Positions 2,384 to 6,182 of a stretch of DNA of 10,520 bases are shown in pieces. The stretch spans positions 1-10,520 of the forward strand of contig JAOUGR010000042.1 of the NCBI GenBank assembly GCA_029857655.1. Direction: 5' to 3'. Numbering within the stretch: position 1 is the stretch's first letter; each line of letters opens with the position of its first letter. This stretch comes from Gammaproteobacteria bacterium (GTDB lineage Bacteria > Pseudomonadota > Gammaproteobacteria > Steroidobacterales > Steroidobacteraceae). A program made the position numbers and the translations under genes. The notes beneath the pieces are model-generated. The model was not told the DNA's origin. It did not search any database and worked only from the letters and a program-made list of their open reading frames with translations.

Positions 2384-2599
2384 ATGAGTCGCCGCGCCTG
2401 GATTGCCGCGGGACTCCTCGCGCTGCCGGCCGCGGCGGCCGAGCCGCCGCCGGACCCGGAATTCCTGGAGTTTCTGGCGGAGACGGCGGACGAGGACCAG
2501 CAATTCGCCGAGTACGTGGAGTCACGCAAATTTGAAAGCGAGCTGCGAAAGGTCGAGGAAGAGCGCGCGGCTGGCAAGGGTGAGGACCATGAACCGTAA
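2384..2599 (+). CDS. Small exported protein of unknown function (71 aa)
   Basis: A signal peptide of about 19 residues (MSRRAWIAAGLLALPAAAA) is followed by a short mature part rich in Glu and Asp (PDPEFLEFLAETADEDQQFAEYVES) and a charged helical tail. I do not recognise a family. ATG 2384 lies 2 nt after the upstream stop, and a TTG at 2378 in the same frame is an alternative. The 3' end overlaps the DUF3106 gene by 11 nt. The gene therefore sits inside the sigma cluster and was probably kept for its product rather than being a chance frame. The mature region is periplasmic by prediction, and its acidic nature contrasts with the very basic DUF3106 product next door, so an interaction is conceivable but unproven. 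Confidence 0.75.
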   Translation: MSRRAWIAAGLLALPAAAAEPPPDPEFLEFLAETADEDQQFAEYVESRKFESELRKVEEERAAGKGEDHEP

Positions 2600-3098
2600 G
2601 CTGATCTGGATACTTGCTGTCTGGTTTGCATTCGCAGCGCCTTCCGTGGCGGCTGCGGAGCAGGAGCCGGGGGGCGGTGTTGCCTGGGAATCGCTGACCG
2701 ACGCACAGCAGGAGCTGCTCGCAGGCCAGAAGGGGCAGTGGAACTCGCTTCCGCCCGGGCGCCAGGAGGCCATGGCCGTCGGCTCGGAGCGCTGGCTCTC
2801 CATGAACCCCGAGCAGCAGGCGAAAGCCCGCGAGCGCTGGAGCAAGTGGAAGAAAATGACGCCGGAGCAGCGCGCTCACCTGCGCGAGCGGTGGCAGCGG
2901 TTCCACGAACTGACGCCGGCGGAAAAGGAAGCCCTGCGCGAAAGATACCGGCGCTTCCAGTCGCTGTCGGACCGGCAGCGCGAGGCATTGCGGGAGCGCT
3001 GGAGGCAGATGACCCCCGAGCAGCGGCAGCGCGCGATCGACAGGCGAACACCGCAGCGACGTCCGGCGCCTGTGCCGACGAACCGGCCTCCGCGCTGA
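2589..3098 (+). CDS. Exported DUF3106-domain protein with 18-residue helical repeats
   Basis: A 169-aa product. A Sec signal peptide (about 1-23, IWILAVWFAFAAPSVAAA) is followed by tandem 18-residue units from about residue 32 to 155. Each unit carries a version of L/M-T-P-E-Q-R-x-x-L-R-E-R-W. This is the pattern of the DUF3106 family, which in many beta- and gammaproteobacteria follows a sigma factor and a small membrane protein. The C-terminal tail is Arg/Pro-rich and very basic. Start ATG 2589 overlaps the upstream gene and has AAGGG 8 nt before it (2576-2580). The function of the family is unknown to me; a periplasmic stress or envelope role is an inference from the neighbouring sigma factor. 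Confidence 0.9.
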   Translation: MNRKLIWILAVWFAFAAPSVAAAEQEPGGGVAWESLTDAQQELLAGQKGQWNSLPPGRQEAMAVGSERWLSMNPEQQAKARERWSKWKKMTPEQRAHLRERWQRFHELTPAEKEALRERYRRFQSLSDRQREALRERWRQMTPEQRQRAIDRRTPQRRPAPVPTNRPPR

Positions 3099-3173: not shown

Positions 3174-3368
3174 ATGTCCAACGCAAAACTGAAGCGCTCG
3201 AACGACCGGATGATCGCCGGTGTCTGCGGCGGCATCGCCGAATGGCTGGGCTGGAAGGCGGACCGGGTCCGTGTGGCCTACGTGATCGTGTCCATTCTGA
3301 GCGCGGCGTTTCCGGGAATCATCGCGTACCTGCTGTTATGGCTGCTGATGCCTGATGCCGACGAATGA
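3174..3368 (+). CDS. Stand-alone PspC-domain membrane protein (64 aa)
   Basis: The whole protein is one PspC domain. A basic start (KLKRSNDRMIAGVCGGIAEW, residues 5-24) holds the hallmark AGVCGGIAEWLG. A hydrophobic stretch at about 34-59 (VAYVIVSILSAAFPGIIAYL onward) forms one or two inner-membrane segments, and an acidic end PDADE follows. In enterobacteria, PspC acts with PspB to sense envelope damage and relieve PspA inhibition of PspF. Here no pspA, pspB or pspF is nearby, so the role may differ. Start: ATG 3174 fits the family's N-terminus; GTG 3129 and GTG 3171 in the same frame are less likely. The Shine-Dalgarno sequence is weak. The stop overlaps the next start by 4 nt (ATGA), so the two genes are probably translated together. 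Confidence 0.92.
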   Translation: MSNAKLKRSNDRMIAGVCGGIAEWLGWKADRVRVAYVIVSILSAAFPGIIAYLLLWLLMPDADE

Positions 3369-4225
3369 ACCGGCGGGTCATCGAACTCTACGACGAGTAC
3401 ACGCACGGCAGGCTCGACCGCCGCAGTTTCCTCGTCAGGCTTGCGTGCCTGGCGGGGAGCGCCGCTGCTGCTGCAGCGCTGCTGCCGTTCCTGGAGAACC
3501 GCTATGCACAGGCCGCAACCATCGCGCCGGACAATCCGAAGCTGAAGACCGGGCGCGGCCGATTCGATACGCCGGACGGCGCGGTCACTTACTACATCGC
3601 ACGGCCCTCTTCGCGGCTGAAGAAGCGGCCGGCGGTCGTCGTGATCCACGAAAACCGCGGTCTGAACGCGCACATCGAAGACATCACGCGCCGGCTCGCG
3701 CTCGCAGGTTTCCTCGCCATCGCGCCCGATGCGCTGTCGGCGTCGGGGGGCACACCCGCCGACGAGGATGAGGCACGAAAGCGGATCGGCGCGCTAGATT
3801 CGGAGGCGACGCTCCGGCGCTATGTCGCCGCAATCAGGCACGCGGCAGATCATGAGCGCAGCACCGGCAAGGTAGGTTGCGTCGGCTTCTGCTGGGGCGG
3901 CAGCATGGCGGGGCGATTGGCGGCGAATTCCCCGGATCTCGCGGCTGCGGTCGTCTTCTACGGCATGCCGCCTGTGGCCGATGAAGCTCTGCGCATCCAG
4001 GTACCGCTGCTCCTGAACTACGCCGGGCTCGACAAGCGCATCGATGATGCGGTGCCCGCCTTCGAAGCGACGCTGAAATCCGCCGGCGTGCGCTATGAGC
4101 TCTACATGTACCCCAATGTCGACCACGCTTTTCACAACGATACGAACGCGGCGCGCTTCAACGCCGCCGCCGCGGTGCTCGCCTGGAAGCGCACCGTCGA
4201 GTTCCTGACGCGCGAACTCCGCTGA
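3365..4225 (+). CDS. Dienelactone hydrolase family protein (YghX-like) with Tat-type signal
   Basis: A 286-aa alpha/beta hydrolase. After a short N-terminal segment (VIELYDEYTHGRLDRRSFL) comes a twin-arginine-like signal (RR at 19-20, then SFL and a hydrophobic run to about 43), suggesting folded export. The HENRG motif (95-99), nucleophile elbow GFCWGG with Cys176, acid Asp223 in AGLDKRID and base His254 in DHAFHND make a complete Cys-Asp-His triad. The layout, including the N-terminal DYY-type helix and the AWKRT near the end, matches the Escherichia coli YghX-type branch of the family as I remember it. The natural substrate is not known; classical members open dienelactones, but this branch has not been tied to that pathway. 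Translation is probably coupled to the PspC gene. The gene converges on pntB. Confidence 0.93.
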   Translation: MNRRVIELYDEYTHGRLDRRSFLVRLACLAGSAAAAAALLPFLENRYAQAATIAPDNPKLKTGRGRFDTPDGAVTYYIARPSSRLKKRPAVVVIHENRGLNAHIEDITRRLALAGFLAIAPDALSASGGTPADEDEARKRIGALDSEATLRRYVAAIRHAADHERSTGKVGCVGFCWGGSMAGRLAANSPDLAAAVVFYGMPPVADEALRIQVPLLLNYAGLDKRIDDAVPAFEATLKSAGVRYELYMYPNVDHAFHNDTNAARFNAAAAVLAWKRTVEFLTRELR

Positions 4226-4240
4226 CGGTTGATTGCAGAT

Positions 4241-4264
4241 CCCGGCCCGCGCTTCTCGGCCGGG
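4241..4264 (+). terminator. GC-rich hairpin after the hydrolase gene, possible terminator
   Basis: CCCGGCC (4241-4247) and GGCCGGG (4258-4264) form a perfect 7-bp stem with a 10-nt loop, starting 15 nt after the hydrolase stop. No T-run follows, so it is not a textbook intrinsic terminator. The right arm is also the outer part of the left arm of the repeat that starts here, so the two structures would compete. Confidence 0.3.
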
Positions 4265-4323
4265 CGGGGCTCCCTCGCTCGTTCAGTCCGAACTTATTCA
4301 GTCGCTCGGGACCCCGCCCGTCC
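4258..4323 (+). repeat. Structured intergenic repeat, copy A
   Basis: The copy folds as GG, a mismatch, CGGGCGGGG (4261-4269), one unpaired C (4270), then TCCC (4271-4274). These arms are closed by GGGA (4308-4311), CCCCGCCCG (4312-4320), a mismatch and CC. The 33-nt loop (4275-4307) begins TCGCTCG, holds TTATTC at 4294-4299 and ends TCGCTC. Copy B on the opposite strand shares the loop, the bulged C and the 4-bp inner stem while its stem bases differ. It lies between convergent genes and has no coding potential I would defend. Confidence 0.75.
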
Positions 4324-4346
4324 AATTCGCGCGGGCGCGGCGCAGC

Positions 4347-4410
4347 GGTCGGCCGGGTGGCGAGCGAGCGAATAAAGATCGGCTGAGCGAGCGAGCCAGC
4401 CCGGCTGACC
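4347..4410 (-). repeat. Structured intergenic repeat, copy B (inverted)
   Basis: Read on the minus strand it folds as GGTC, a mismatch, GCCGGG, one unpaired C (opposite G4399), TGGC, a 33-nt loop, GCCA, CCCGGC, a mismatch, GACC. The loop (4362-4394) again starts TCGCTCG, holds TTATTC and ends TCGCTC. Against copy A it matches at 24 of 33 positions without gaps, or 28 of 34 columns with two single-base gaps. The inner stem TGGC/GCCA replaces TCCC/GGGA of copy A with pairing kept. The 23 nt between the copies are GC-rich and I see nothing else in them. Confidence 0.75.
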
Positions 4411-4455: not shown

Positions 4456-5877
4456 CTAGCCGACGGCCTTGATCGCGTGAATCAACTCGGCGGCGACTTT
4501 CTGGGCGTCACCGTAGACCATGCGCGTATTGTCGAGGAAGAAGAGGTGATTCTCGATGCCCGAGAATCCCGCGCCCTGGCCGCGCTTGATCACCAGCACA
4601 TTCTTGGCCTTGTCGGCATTCAGGATCGGCATGCCGTAGATGGGACTGCTCTTGTCGGTGCGCGCAACCGGGTTCACGACGTCGTTCGCGCCGATCACGA
4701 GCGCCACGTCCGCGGTGTCGAATTCTGCATTGATTTCGTCGAGGTCCGCGATCAGGTCGTAGGGCACGCCGGCCTCGGCCAGCAACACGTTCATGTGGCC
4801 CGGCATGCGCCCGGCGACCGGGTGGATCGCGAAGCGCACCATGACGCCCCTGTCAATCAGCAGCTGGCACAGCTCCCAGACCTTGTGCTGCGCCTGCGCA
4901 ACCGCCATGCCGTAGCCCGGTATCACGAGGACTTTCTGCGCAAACGCCATCATGACGCCGGCGTCGGAGGCCTCGATCGGCTTCAACGCGCCGGTCACGC
5001 CTTCGGCAGCGACCACCGGGCCTTCGCCGAAGCCCGAGAACAGCACGTTGCCGAGCGAGCGGTTCATCGCCTTCGCCATCAGCTGCGTCAGCAGCGTGCC
5101 GGCGGATCCGACCACGATGCCCGCGATGATCATCGCGGCGTTCTCTAGCACGAAGCCCTCGAATGCGACCGCGAGCCCGGTGAAGGCGTTGTACAGCGAG
5201 ATCACGACCGGCATGTCGGCGCCGCCGATCGGCAGTGTCATGGTGATGCCCAGGAGCAGCGCGAGCGCGAAGAACAGCACGACCGTCTGCATCGTGGGAT
5301 GGCCGGCGACGACCAGCGACGCGCCGATCGCGAGGGTCGCAGCGACGATCAGCAGGTTCACGACCTGCTGGCCCTTGAAGCGGAAGCTGCGCTTGATGAG
5401 GCCCTGCAGCTTGCCGAAAGCGATCAGCGATCCCGAGAAGCTGACCGCGCCGATGAATGCACCCGCGGCTGCCAGTGCGGTGACCACGGGCCCGTGCGCG
5501 GCGACCGATTCCGGCTGCGCTGCGGCCATGCGTAACAGTTCCACCGCCGCAATCGCCGCCGCCGCGCCGCCGCCCATGCCGTTGTAGAGCGCGATCATCT
5601 GCGGCATGTCGGTCATCGCAACGATGCGTCCCGACCACCAGGCCAGCCCGCCGCCGATCGCGATAGCCGCCAGCATCAGCGGGAAGTTCCCCATGCCGGG
5701 ATAGAGGAAGCTCATCACCGTGCCGATCAGCATGCCGACGCCCGCGACGACGATGCCGCGCCGCGCCGTGACCGGCGAACTCATGGCCTTCAGGCCCATG
5801 ATGAAAAGGAAGGCGACCAGCAGGTAGCTGGCGTCTATTAGGAGCGTCGCGACATTGTCCGGTAGAAGGCCCTGCAT
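4456..5877 (-). CDS. pntB: Proton-translocating NAD(P)+ transhydrogenase, beta subunit
   Basis: This 473-aa subunit carries most of the membrane part (domain II) and the NADP(H)-binding domain III. With PntAA and PntAB it couples proton re-entry to hydride transfer from NADH to NADP+, supplying NADPH. Residues 1 to about 280 hold a series of hydrophobic helices with the conserved YNGMGG (about 98-103) and LYNAFTGLA segments. Domain III shows GYGMAVAQAQ (321-330), HPVAGRMPGHMNVLLAEA, GANDVVNP (396-403) and KRGQGAGFSGIEN (431-443), all typical of the NADP site. The length is normal. The upstream pntAB stop overlaps the start region (GTGATG). I prefer ATG 5877, with AGGAG 8 nt upstream; GTG 5880 would add one residue. 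It is the last gene of the operon, facing the structured repeats. Confidence 0.97.
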   Translation of the reverse strand: MQGLLPDNVATLLIDASYLLVAFLFIMGLKAMSSPVTARRGIVVAGVGMLIGTVMSFLYPGMGNFPLMLAAIAIGGGLAWWSGRIVAMTDMPQMIALYNGMGGGAAAAIAAVELLRMAAAQPESVAAHGPVVTALAAAGAFIGAVSFSGSLIAFGKLQGLIKRSFRFKGQQVVNLLIVAATLAIGASLVVAGHPTMQTVVLFFALALLLGITMTLPIGGADMPVVISLYNAFTGLAVAFEGFVLENAAMIIAGIVVGSAGTLLTQLMAKAMNRSLGNVLFSGFGEGPVVAAEGVTGALKPIEASDAGVMMAFAQKVLVIPGYGMAVAQAQHKVWELCQLLIDRGVMVRFAIHPVAGRMPGHMNVLLAEAGVPYDLIADLDEINAEFDTADVALVIGANDVVNPVARTDKSSPIYGMPILNADKAKNVLVIKRGQGAGFSGIENHLFFLDNTRMVYGDAQKVAAELIHAIKAVG

Positions 5878-6182
5878 CACGCAGACTCCTTCGGCTTGTT
5901 CTTCTGCCCGCTGGACCGGAACATCTCGAGCATGCGTTCGGTCACCACATAGCCGCCGACTGCATTGCCGGCGCCCAGCATCACGCCGACGAAGCCGATG
6001 ATCTGCTCGAGCAGGGTATCGGCGCGGCCGAGCGCGACCATCGCGCCGACCAGCACGATGCCATGCACGAAGTTCGAGCCAGACATCAGCGGCGTGTGCA
6101 GGATCACCGGGACGCGCGCGATGACCTCATAGCCGGCAAACGCCGCCAGCATCACGATATAAAGTGCGATCACGCCTTCCAT
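5877..6182 (-). CDS. pntAB: Proton-translocating NAD(P)+ transhydrogenase, alpha subunit part 2 (membrane)
   Basis: A 101-aa membrane protein corresponding to the C-terminal membrane segment of enterobacterial PntA, encoded separately here. Hydrophobic helices lie at about 3-20, 33-50 and 60-80. The SGSNFVHGIVLVGAM stretch and the GAGNAVGGYVVTERML motif near the C-terminus are conserved in this subunit. The Lys-rich tail faces the cytoplasm by inference. ATG 6182 overlaps the TAA of pntAA by one base (TAATG), and its own stop overlaps the pntB start, so the three genes are translationally linked. The split alpha subunit is the arrangement known from Rhodospirillum rubrum and many other proteobacteria. 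Confidence 0.96.
   Translation of the reverse strand: MEGVIALYIVMLAAFAGYEVIARVPVILHTPLMSGSNFVHGIVLVGAMVALGRADTLLEQIIGFVGVMLGAGNAVGGYVVTERMLEMFRSSGQKNKPKESA

What the first reader, a model, noticed from the sequence alone, without database searches (positions are those of the whole stretch)
4258..4410. Paired inverted hairpin repeats with conserved loop, conserved bulge and compensating stem changes
Seen directly: two 64-66 nt elements in opposite orientation between convergent genes. Each has a stem with one unpaired C at the same place, exactly 4 bp between that bulge and the loop, and a 33-nt loop. The loops match at 24 of 33 positions ungapped (28 of 34 columns with two one-base gaps), sharing both TCGCTC ends and a central TTATTC. 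The stems differ in sequence yet stay paired (TCCC/GGGA against TGGC/GCCA; CGGGCGGGG against GCCGGG). Conserved loop plus compensating stem changes suggests selection on a folded RNA or single-stranded DNA. Known comparisons are BIME pairs of REP elements mobilised by TnpA-REP, and folded recombination sites with extrahelical bases such as attC. I recognise no exact match to either. Alternatively it could act as a two-way transcription terminator.
Basis: partly seen in the sequence, partly recalled or inferred. Interest (0 to 1): 0.72.

Follow-up and report, generated by a model that had tools for sequence, protein, structure and literature searches.

The report
REP-like hairpin repeat family
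The two hairpins are one copy of a family of short repeated hairpins scattered through the genomes of one genus of uncultured bacteria, mostly just after genes and once inside the gene for DNA polymerase I; they behave like the known REP repeats but lack the REP signature, so what spreads them is an open question.

Summary
The two elements belong to a family of 143 hairpins in all 7 held genomes of the window's genus (3, 6, 32, 45, 14, 31, 12). R1 also matches 3 copies in 1 of 210 other genomes of the family and none of 368 others in a class-wide sample (strict filters). Shared features: a variable but paired stem; one extrahelical base on the 3' arm of the GAGCGA strand (94 hairpins against 4 on the 5' arm); a GAGCGA/GAGCGA neck whose tandem G.A pairs swap with Watson-Crick pairs. 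Of 43 close pairs, 42 have one inverted polarity. Units sit after genes: 44 convergent, 41 tandem, 3 divergent, 4 in a gene, 8 at edges. Orthologous sites differ in presence and orientation; polA carries one in frame in four species. It works like a REP/BIME/REPIN, but is not a GTAG/CGTC REP, attC site or intrinsic terminator by the tests made. No enzyme was found; Y1 transposase genes are unlinked. Compensating stem changes need not mean selection on RNA, since template switching between arms gives the same pattern; the strand-specific neck and bulge are better evidence that a folded strand is recognised.

The parts
4258..4323 (-). hairpin 1; the strand that reads GAGCGA is the minus strand
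   Evidence: folds; model R1 match 4261-4321 minus, 75.1 bits
4270..4270 (-). extrahelical base of hairpin 1, on the 3' arm of the GAGCGA strand, 4 bp from the core
   Evidence: fold; one-sided bulge in the family
4275..4307 (-). core of hairpin 1: neck halves GAGCGA at 4302-4307 and 4275-4280 and terminal loop between
4324..4346 (.). spacer between the two hairpins (26 nt between model ends; family median 60, range 19-150)
4347..4410 (+). hairpin 2; the strand that reads GAGCGA is the plus strand
   Evidence: folds; model R1 match 4348-4408 plus, 77.7 bits
4362..4394 (+). core of hairpin 2: neck halves GAGCGAGCGA at 4362-4371 and 4385-4394 and terminal loop between
4399..4399 (+). extrahelical base of hairpin 2, on the 3' arm of the GAGCGA strand, 4 bp from the core
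   Evidence: fold
3365..4225 (+). flanking gene, hydrolase (YghX/dienelactone-hydrolase type); its stop is 35 nt from the unit
   Evidence: NF041440 284 bits, below its cut-off of 460; distance
4456..5880 (-). flanking gene, NAD(P) transhydrogenase beta subunit; its stop is 47 nt from the unit
   Evidence: NF006974 388 bits, below its cut-off of 689; orthologues

Best explanation
The pair is one unit of a dispersed palindromic repeat family, all but confined to one genus as far as searched, that works like REP/BIME/REPIN elements: non-autonomous, spread in trans, tolerated mainly just after stop codons, often as an inverted pair. Shown: copy number, fixed pair polarity, conserved neck and one-sided bulge, 3'-end location, presence/absence and orientation differences at orthologous sites, in-frame copies in polA. 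Inferred: whatever spreads it reads one folded strand (most likely single-stranded DNA exposed in replication) through the GAGCGA neck and the extrahelical base on the 3' arm; arm complementarity is kept partly by template switching. Not known: the enzyme, and whether RNA or DNA is read.
For: 143 distinct hairpins in 7 of 7 genomes of the genus. 42 of 43 close pairs have the 5' ends of the GAGCGA strands facing each other. Tandem G.A in the neck is kept or replaced by two Watson-Crick pairs: outer 107 kept, 20 replaced, 9 broken of 136 ungapped rows; inner 102, 34, 5 of 141; shuffling gives 37.7 and 28.9 broken. Bulge on the 3' arm in 94 against 4 of 145; without the model, 53 against 4 of 76. 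44 convergent against 3 divergent units of 100, stops a median 32 nt away. Whole pair units repeated within a genome, e.g. 251 nt at 90% between L015 and L089. Window site: pair in G003, single hairpin in G005, none between the same two genes in G004. polA in-frame copies in four species, one in the opposite orientation. No strand preference of single hairpins between tandem genes (12 against 10), which speaks against a purely mRNA-strand function.
Against: No enzyme and no autonomous copy identified; no exact insertion junction or target duplication was worked out. 17 groups covering 49 of 100 units are shared between species, so many copies are old and recent movement is not shown directly. 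Presence/absence at the window site could also be deletion in G004. The polA copy of G006 folds no better than shuffles as single-stranded DNA (z -0.94, 34 of 200). Covariance alignment A4 is fitted to its structure.
Confidence: 0.6

Rival explanations
1. A host RNA element at gene 3' ends: the transcribed hairpin protects or sets mRNA 3' ends, or tunes operon genes, and is kept by selection at each site.
For: Units cluster after stop codons (median 32 nt, n 129) with 44 convergent against 3 divergent; 49 of 100 units lie at sites shared between species; pairing kept through changes.
Against: No preference for the GAGCGA strand to be the mRNA strand (12 against 10); orthologous hairpins with like stems are flipped in 12 and kept in 8 comparisons; the polA copy is in either orientation; no Rfam match.
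Confidence: 0.14
2. A true RAYT-mobilised REP family whose GTAG tag has decayed; the Y1 transposases of the genus moved it.
For: Y1_Tnp genes found in G002, G003, G004, G005 (32, 45, 14, 31 hairpins) and not in G000, G001, G006 (3, 6, 12 hairpins).
Against: G000, G001 and G006 are 75-88% complete, so absence is unsure; the best R1 match in the loci around the six genes is 18.3 bits, E 0.077 (the loci reach up to about 1.5 kb each side, L138 less); Y1_Tnp also occurs in 16 of 52 relatives outside the genus, where R1 finds the repeat in 1 of 52, a genome without Y1_Tnp; 0 of 141 hairpins have GTAG within 12 nt of the 5' foot.
Confidence: 0.1
3. Old relic palindromes, no longer mobile, kept paired and flipped only by replication template switching.
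For: Template switching equalises arms and inverts spacers (PMC8604942, passages; PMC8794818, start of abstract in the listing); shared sites and flips.
Against: It does not explain copies repeated within a genome, the fixed pair polarity, or the neck and bulge conserved on one strand: the bulge lies on the 3' arm of the GAGCGA strand whichever way the hairpin faces.
Confidence: 0.1
4. A bidirectional intrinsic transcription terminator.
For: Strong G+C hairpins between convergent genes in the window and in 44 of 100 units.
Against: 0 of 284 hairpin ends have 5 or more T in any 8-nt window within 20 nt; the only terminator-like site near the window pair is elsewhere; units lie within runs of same-strand genes that look like operons.
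Confidence: 0.03
5. An integron attC-like recombination site.
For: Folded site with an extrahelical base; integron integrase above cut-off in 2 of 7 genomes of the genus.
Against: 0 of 145 hairpins with an R-box pair; hairpins occur as unlinked inverted units, not cassette arrays; the 141-nt repeats beside the G003 integrase begin TCTAAC and end GTTAGA and are not matched by R1 beyond 12.7 bits. Told against me: my attC pattern reported no site in L238, so calling these repeats attC is a reading by eye.
Confidence: 0.01

Closest known systems
REP / BIME / REPIN elements (GTAG- and CGTC-tagged palindromes, PMC3733652; REPINs, PMC3116915; passages read)
   Same: Dispersed short palindromes, often inverted pairs with spacers of tens of nt, predominantly between convergent and unidirectional genes, occasionally in frame in genes including DNA polymerase I.
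   Different: No GTAG or CGTC foot; stem free and loop end conserved; tandem-G.A neck; loop longer than the 2-20 bp and 4-5 bp listed for those kinds; no linked RAYT.
Rickettsia palindromic elements (RPE)
   Same: In-frame palindromic insertions in protein genes (PMC3733652 passages).
   Different: RPE-4 and RPE-6 end in CGTC; here only polA is hit among the units found, and no CGTC end.
Folded single-strand recognition sites: IS200/IS605 ends, TnpA-REP sites, integron attC
   Same: A hairpin in which an unpaired base and loop mark one strand (PMC8266576 passages, for IS608, ISDra2 and REP; attC extrahelical bases recalled).
   Different: No adjacent Y1 or integrase gene, no attC boxes, tandem-G.A neck.

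Membership tests
GTAG REP | GTAG at the 5' foot of the palindrome | tested here: not met
   0 of 141 hairpins have GTAG within 12 nt of the 5' foot (GTGG 5)
CGTC REP / RPE-4, RPE-6 | CGTC at one end | tested here: not met
   CGTC in 3 of 141 at the 5' foot and 4 of 141 at the 3' foot
GTAG REP | RAYT gene flanked by its own repeats | tested here: not met
   Y1_Tnp in 4 of 7 genomes, none beside a family hairpin (best 18.3 bits)
REPIN / BIME (organisation) | inverted pairs of the repeat with a spacer, over-represented | tested here: met
   43 pairs among 100 units, 42 in one inverted polarity, spacer median 60 nt
REP-like (location) | mostly extragenic, downstream of genes | tested here: met
   4 of 100 units in a gene (all polA), 44 convergent, 41 tandem, 3 divergent, 8 at contig edges; gene calls by my own codon-usage script
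REP-like (mobility) | spread by a transposase in trans | not testable with these tools
   no enzyme known; repeats within a genome and presence/absence are indirect
attC | R-box pair RYYYAAC ... GTTRRRY | tested here: not met
   0 of 145 hairpins with 30 nt added on each side
intrinsic terminator | T-run after the hairpin | tested here: not met
   0 of 284 ends
Rfam families | score above a gathering threshold | tested here: not met
   0 matches in the window, in 10 loci and in 4 integrase loci

The most novel reading that the evidence does not exclude
A third kind of REP-like element, tagged neither GTAG nor CGTC, in which the stem is free and the recognition signal is a tandem-G.A neck plus a one-sided extrahelical base and terminal loop, moved as folded single-stranded DNA by an enzyme that is not a RAYT; independently of the two known kinds it too has ended up inside DNA polymerase I.
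Probability: 0.4. Interest if true: 0.72.

Novelty: new variant of a known kind. Interest (0 to 1): 0.56.

Why it matters
If right, dispersed bacterial palindromes also arise outside the GTAG/RAYT system, with the signal at the loop end of the hairpin rather than at its foot. The family's only in-gene copies among 100 units are in DNA polymerase I, a gene also reported to carry GTAG/CGTC repeats in other bacteria, where the authors doubted chance (PMC3733652, passages). An unrelated repeat in the same gene makes the question why such repeats end up in repair polymerases testable with an independent case.

Tried and rejected
Exact loop pattern in the own genome: besides the window's two elements, 4 matches that do not resemble the loop. 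BLAST of the element in 59 relatives showed the genus family; 58 of 59 genomes 'match' at E <= 10, most outside the genus being short G+C-rich pieces. Rfam at E up to 10: 6 matches, all far below their thresholds. GTDB pattern scan: 34 stretches, 29 of them in records of the genus by title and contig length; of the other 5, L140 has a true pair, L148, L151 and L167 score at most 18.6 bits and L163 nothing. Viral contigs (same pattern), plasmids and phages (one pair unit, L031:1490-1690): no match. A first gene finder trained on all long frames gave shadow genes and 17 'inside' units; a second, trained on identified genes, replaced it. Concerted evolution of loops within a genome was tested and is not clear: core identity 0.739 same genome, 0.735 same site in another genome, 0.674 neither. 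Literature: search listings only for (Steroidobacter with palindromic and hairpin: 0 papers); passages read in PMC3733652, PMC8266576, PMC3116915, PMC12306157 and PMC8604942; nothing more. I claim no more than that these searches did not show this family.

Limits: the pairwise orientation counts (54 comparisons: stem identity >= 0.75, 12 flipped and 8 kept; below, 14 and 20) are not independent events, and two of them use the weaker-strand match of the near-perfect palindrome L108; using its better strand swaps one of each and leaves 12 and 8. Alignment A4 leans towards its structure; A3 and the model-free bulge count are the cleaner controls. The background gene pairs come from the neighbourhood of the units and are biased against convergent pairs. 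Two both-strand duplicate matches were dropped for the 143 hairpins but not. Searches over more than 40 genomes used strict filters that lose weak matches and scored 14-92 candidates per genome, so copy numbers and absences are lower bounds.

Full report
What was seen. The window is one contig of an 88%-complete genome in 507 contigs. Two hairpins in opposite orientation lie between a hydrolase gene and the transhydrogenase beta gene, which converge. The strand reading GAGCGA folds better for both elements, because the loop ends GAGCGA...GAGCGA can pair through G-C pairs flanked by tandem G.A pairs. Folded together, the two elements pair with each other.

It is a family. BLAST in 59 relatives found related DNA at E 2e-4 or better in all six other genomes of the genus. 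A covariance model R1 from 17 copies aligned by sequence alone gave 141 matches at E <= 0.01 in 8 of 59 genomes. Re-search of the 96 loci gave 148 matches; after dropping 2 both-strand duplicates and 3 matches in G029, 143 distinct hairpins remain in the genus: 3, 6, 32, 45, 14, 31 and 12 in G000 to G006. In the taxonomic family 8 of 217 genomes match (the 7 of the genus and G029, whose three copies share an identical 85-nt stretch); in a class-wide sample only the window's genome does (1 of 369). One more record, JAABQT, titled Betaproteobacteria, has a pair at a locus 79.7% identical to G003 over 2.3 kb, so its title is doubtful.

Anatomy. On the sequence-only alignment 14 of 23 pairs change on both sides; covariation is 0.398 against 0.138 shuffled and at most 0.119 when slid; on the large alignment 0.579 against 0.163 (the number of pairs changed on both sides, 22, is reached by 12 of 500 shuffles, the other measures by none). 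The neck: tandem G.A is replaced by two Watson-Crick pairs in 20 (outer) and 34 (inner) rows and broken in 9 and 5, where shuffling gives 37.7 and 28.9, so the G.A pairs behave as real pairs. The extrahelical base lies on the 3' arm of the GAGCGA strand in 94 hairpins and on the 5' arm in 4 of 145, with 38 uninterrupted stems; found by regular expression without the model, 53 against 4 of 76. In 86 of the 94 it is 3-7 bp from the core; the window's 4 bp is the commonest. Several terminal loops exist, among them GTAAGTTCCGGCG and ATAAAGATCGGCT. In G002 and G003 many pairs join two different hairpin types.

Arrangement and place. There are 100 units, 57 single and 43 pairs; 42 pairs have the 5' ends of the GAGCGA strands facing each other, one is tandem, none is the reverse. 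With a codon-usage gene finder trained on identified genes, 44 units are convergent, 41 tandem, 3 divergent, 4 in a gene and 8 at contig edges; stop codons lie a median 32 nt away. Single hairpins between tandem genes show no strand preference (12 against 10). Units lie between murC and murG and between ftsW and murD in G003 (genes named by my reading) and between imuB and dnaE2 in four genomes (ImuA, LexA and error-prone polymerase matched, imuB named by my reading and unmatched there).

Movement. At the window's site G003 has a pair between the same two genes, G005 one hairpin beside the transhydrogenase gene, G004 none between the same genes, and G001 and G006 none in the 420 nt printed after the gene, with other neighbours. 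Grouping by flanking proteins gives 17 groups of shared sites that cover 49 of 100 units, some by one flank only. Where homologous stems are clear, orientation is flipped in 12 comparisons and kept in 8 (not independent). In polA the element is read in frame, about residues 291-312, between the 5' nuclease part and the rest of the enzyme, in G001, G005 and G006 in one orientation and in G003 in the other. G002's polA linker lacks it, polA was not found in G000 and G004, and the 19 aligned genes of other genera show no counterpart. The bulge lies on the 3' arm of the GAGCGA strand in G003 as in G006 (by eye), so the hairpin as a whole is turned. Whole units are repeated within genomes, for example 251 nt at 90% in G002.

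Reading. All this fits a REP/BIME/REPIN-like, non-autonomous repeat. It fails the GTAG and CGTC tests and has no linked Y1 gene; Y1 genes occur in 4 of 7 genomes of the genus and 16 of 52 others. Stem compensation alone cannot prove selection on RNA: template switching between inverted-repeat arms equalises arms and inverts spacers (PMC8604942, passages). What template switching does not explain is the neck and bulge conserved on one strand; that is why I favour recognition of one folded strand. Sequence alone cannot tell single-stranded DNA from RNA recognition; the flips and the lack of strand preference favour DNA. Against it stands the polA copy of G006, whose DNA fold is no better than shuffles (z -0.94). 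The enzyme is the missing piece. PMC3733652 reports GTAG/CGTC repeats in DNA polymerase I and other repair genes of other bacteria and doubts chance (passages); here an unrelated repeat has its only in-gene copies, among the units found, in polA.

Noticed in passing
L107, L057, L091, L121 (G003, G004, G006, G005): Units of the family sit between imuB and dnaE2, in an SOS-type translesion-polymerase gene run, in four genomes; with polA this makes two repair-polymerase loci.
   Followed up: partly
L238:480-1960 and G003:C116:1906-2847; G002:C121, G002:C103: Integron integrase genes above the family cut-off in G002 (two) and G003 (one), with two 141-nt attC-looking repeats 608 nt apart beside the G003 gene; fragments in G001 and G005.
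   Followed up: partly
L140 (JAABQT010000075.1): A record titled Betaproteobacteria is 79.7% identical over 2.3 kb to a genome of this genus and carries a hairpin pair at the same locus; the title is probably wrong.
   Followed up: partly
L051, L059, L067 (G029): Three hairpins in another genus share an identical 85-nt stretch; two of them lie at contig ends, as recent repeats do.
   Followed up: partly
L108:1801-1868: A near-perfect palindrome copy whose neck is all Watson-Crick, so that the model matches both strands; the same site in G004 and G005 has hairpins with other loops.
   Followed up: no
window 2403-3098 plus strand: Open frame with a signal-like start followed by repeated LSDRQREALRERWRQMTPEQR-type segments, next to a sigma-factor-like frame at 1198-2019 (named by eye).
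   Followed up: no
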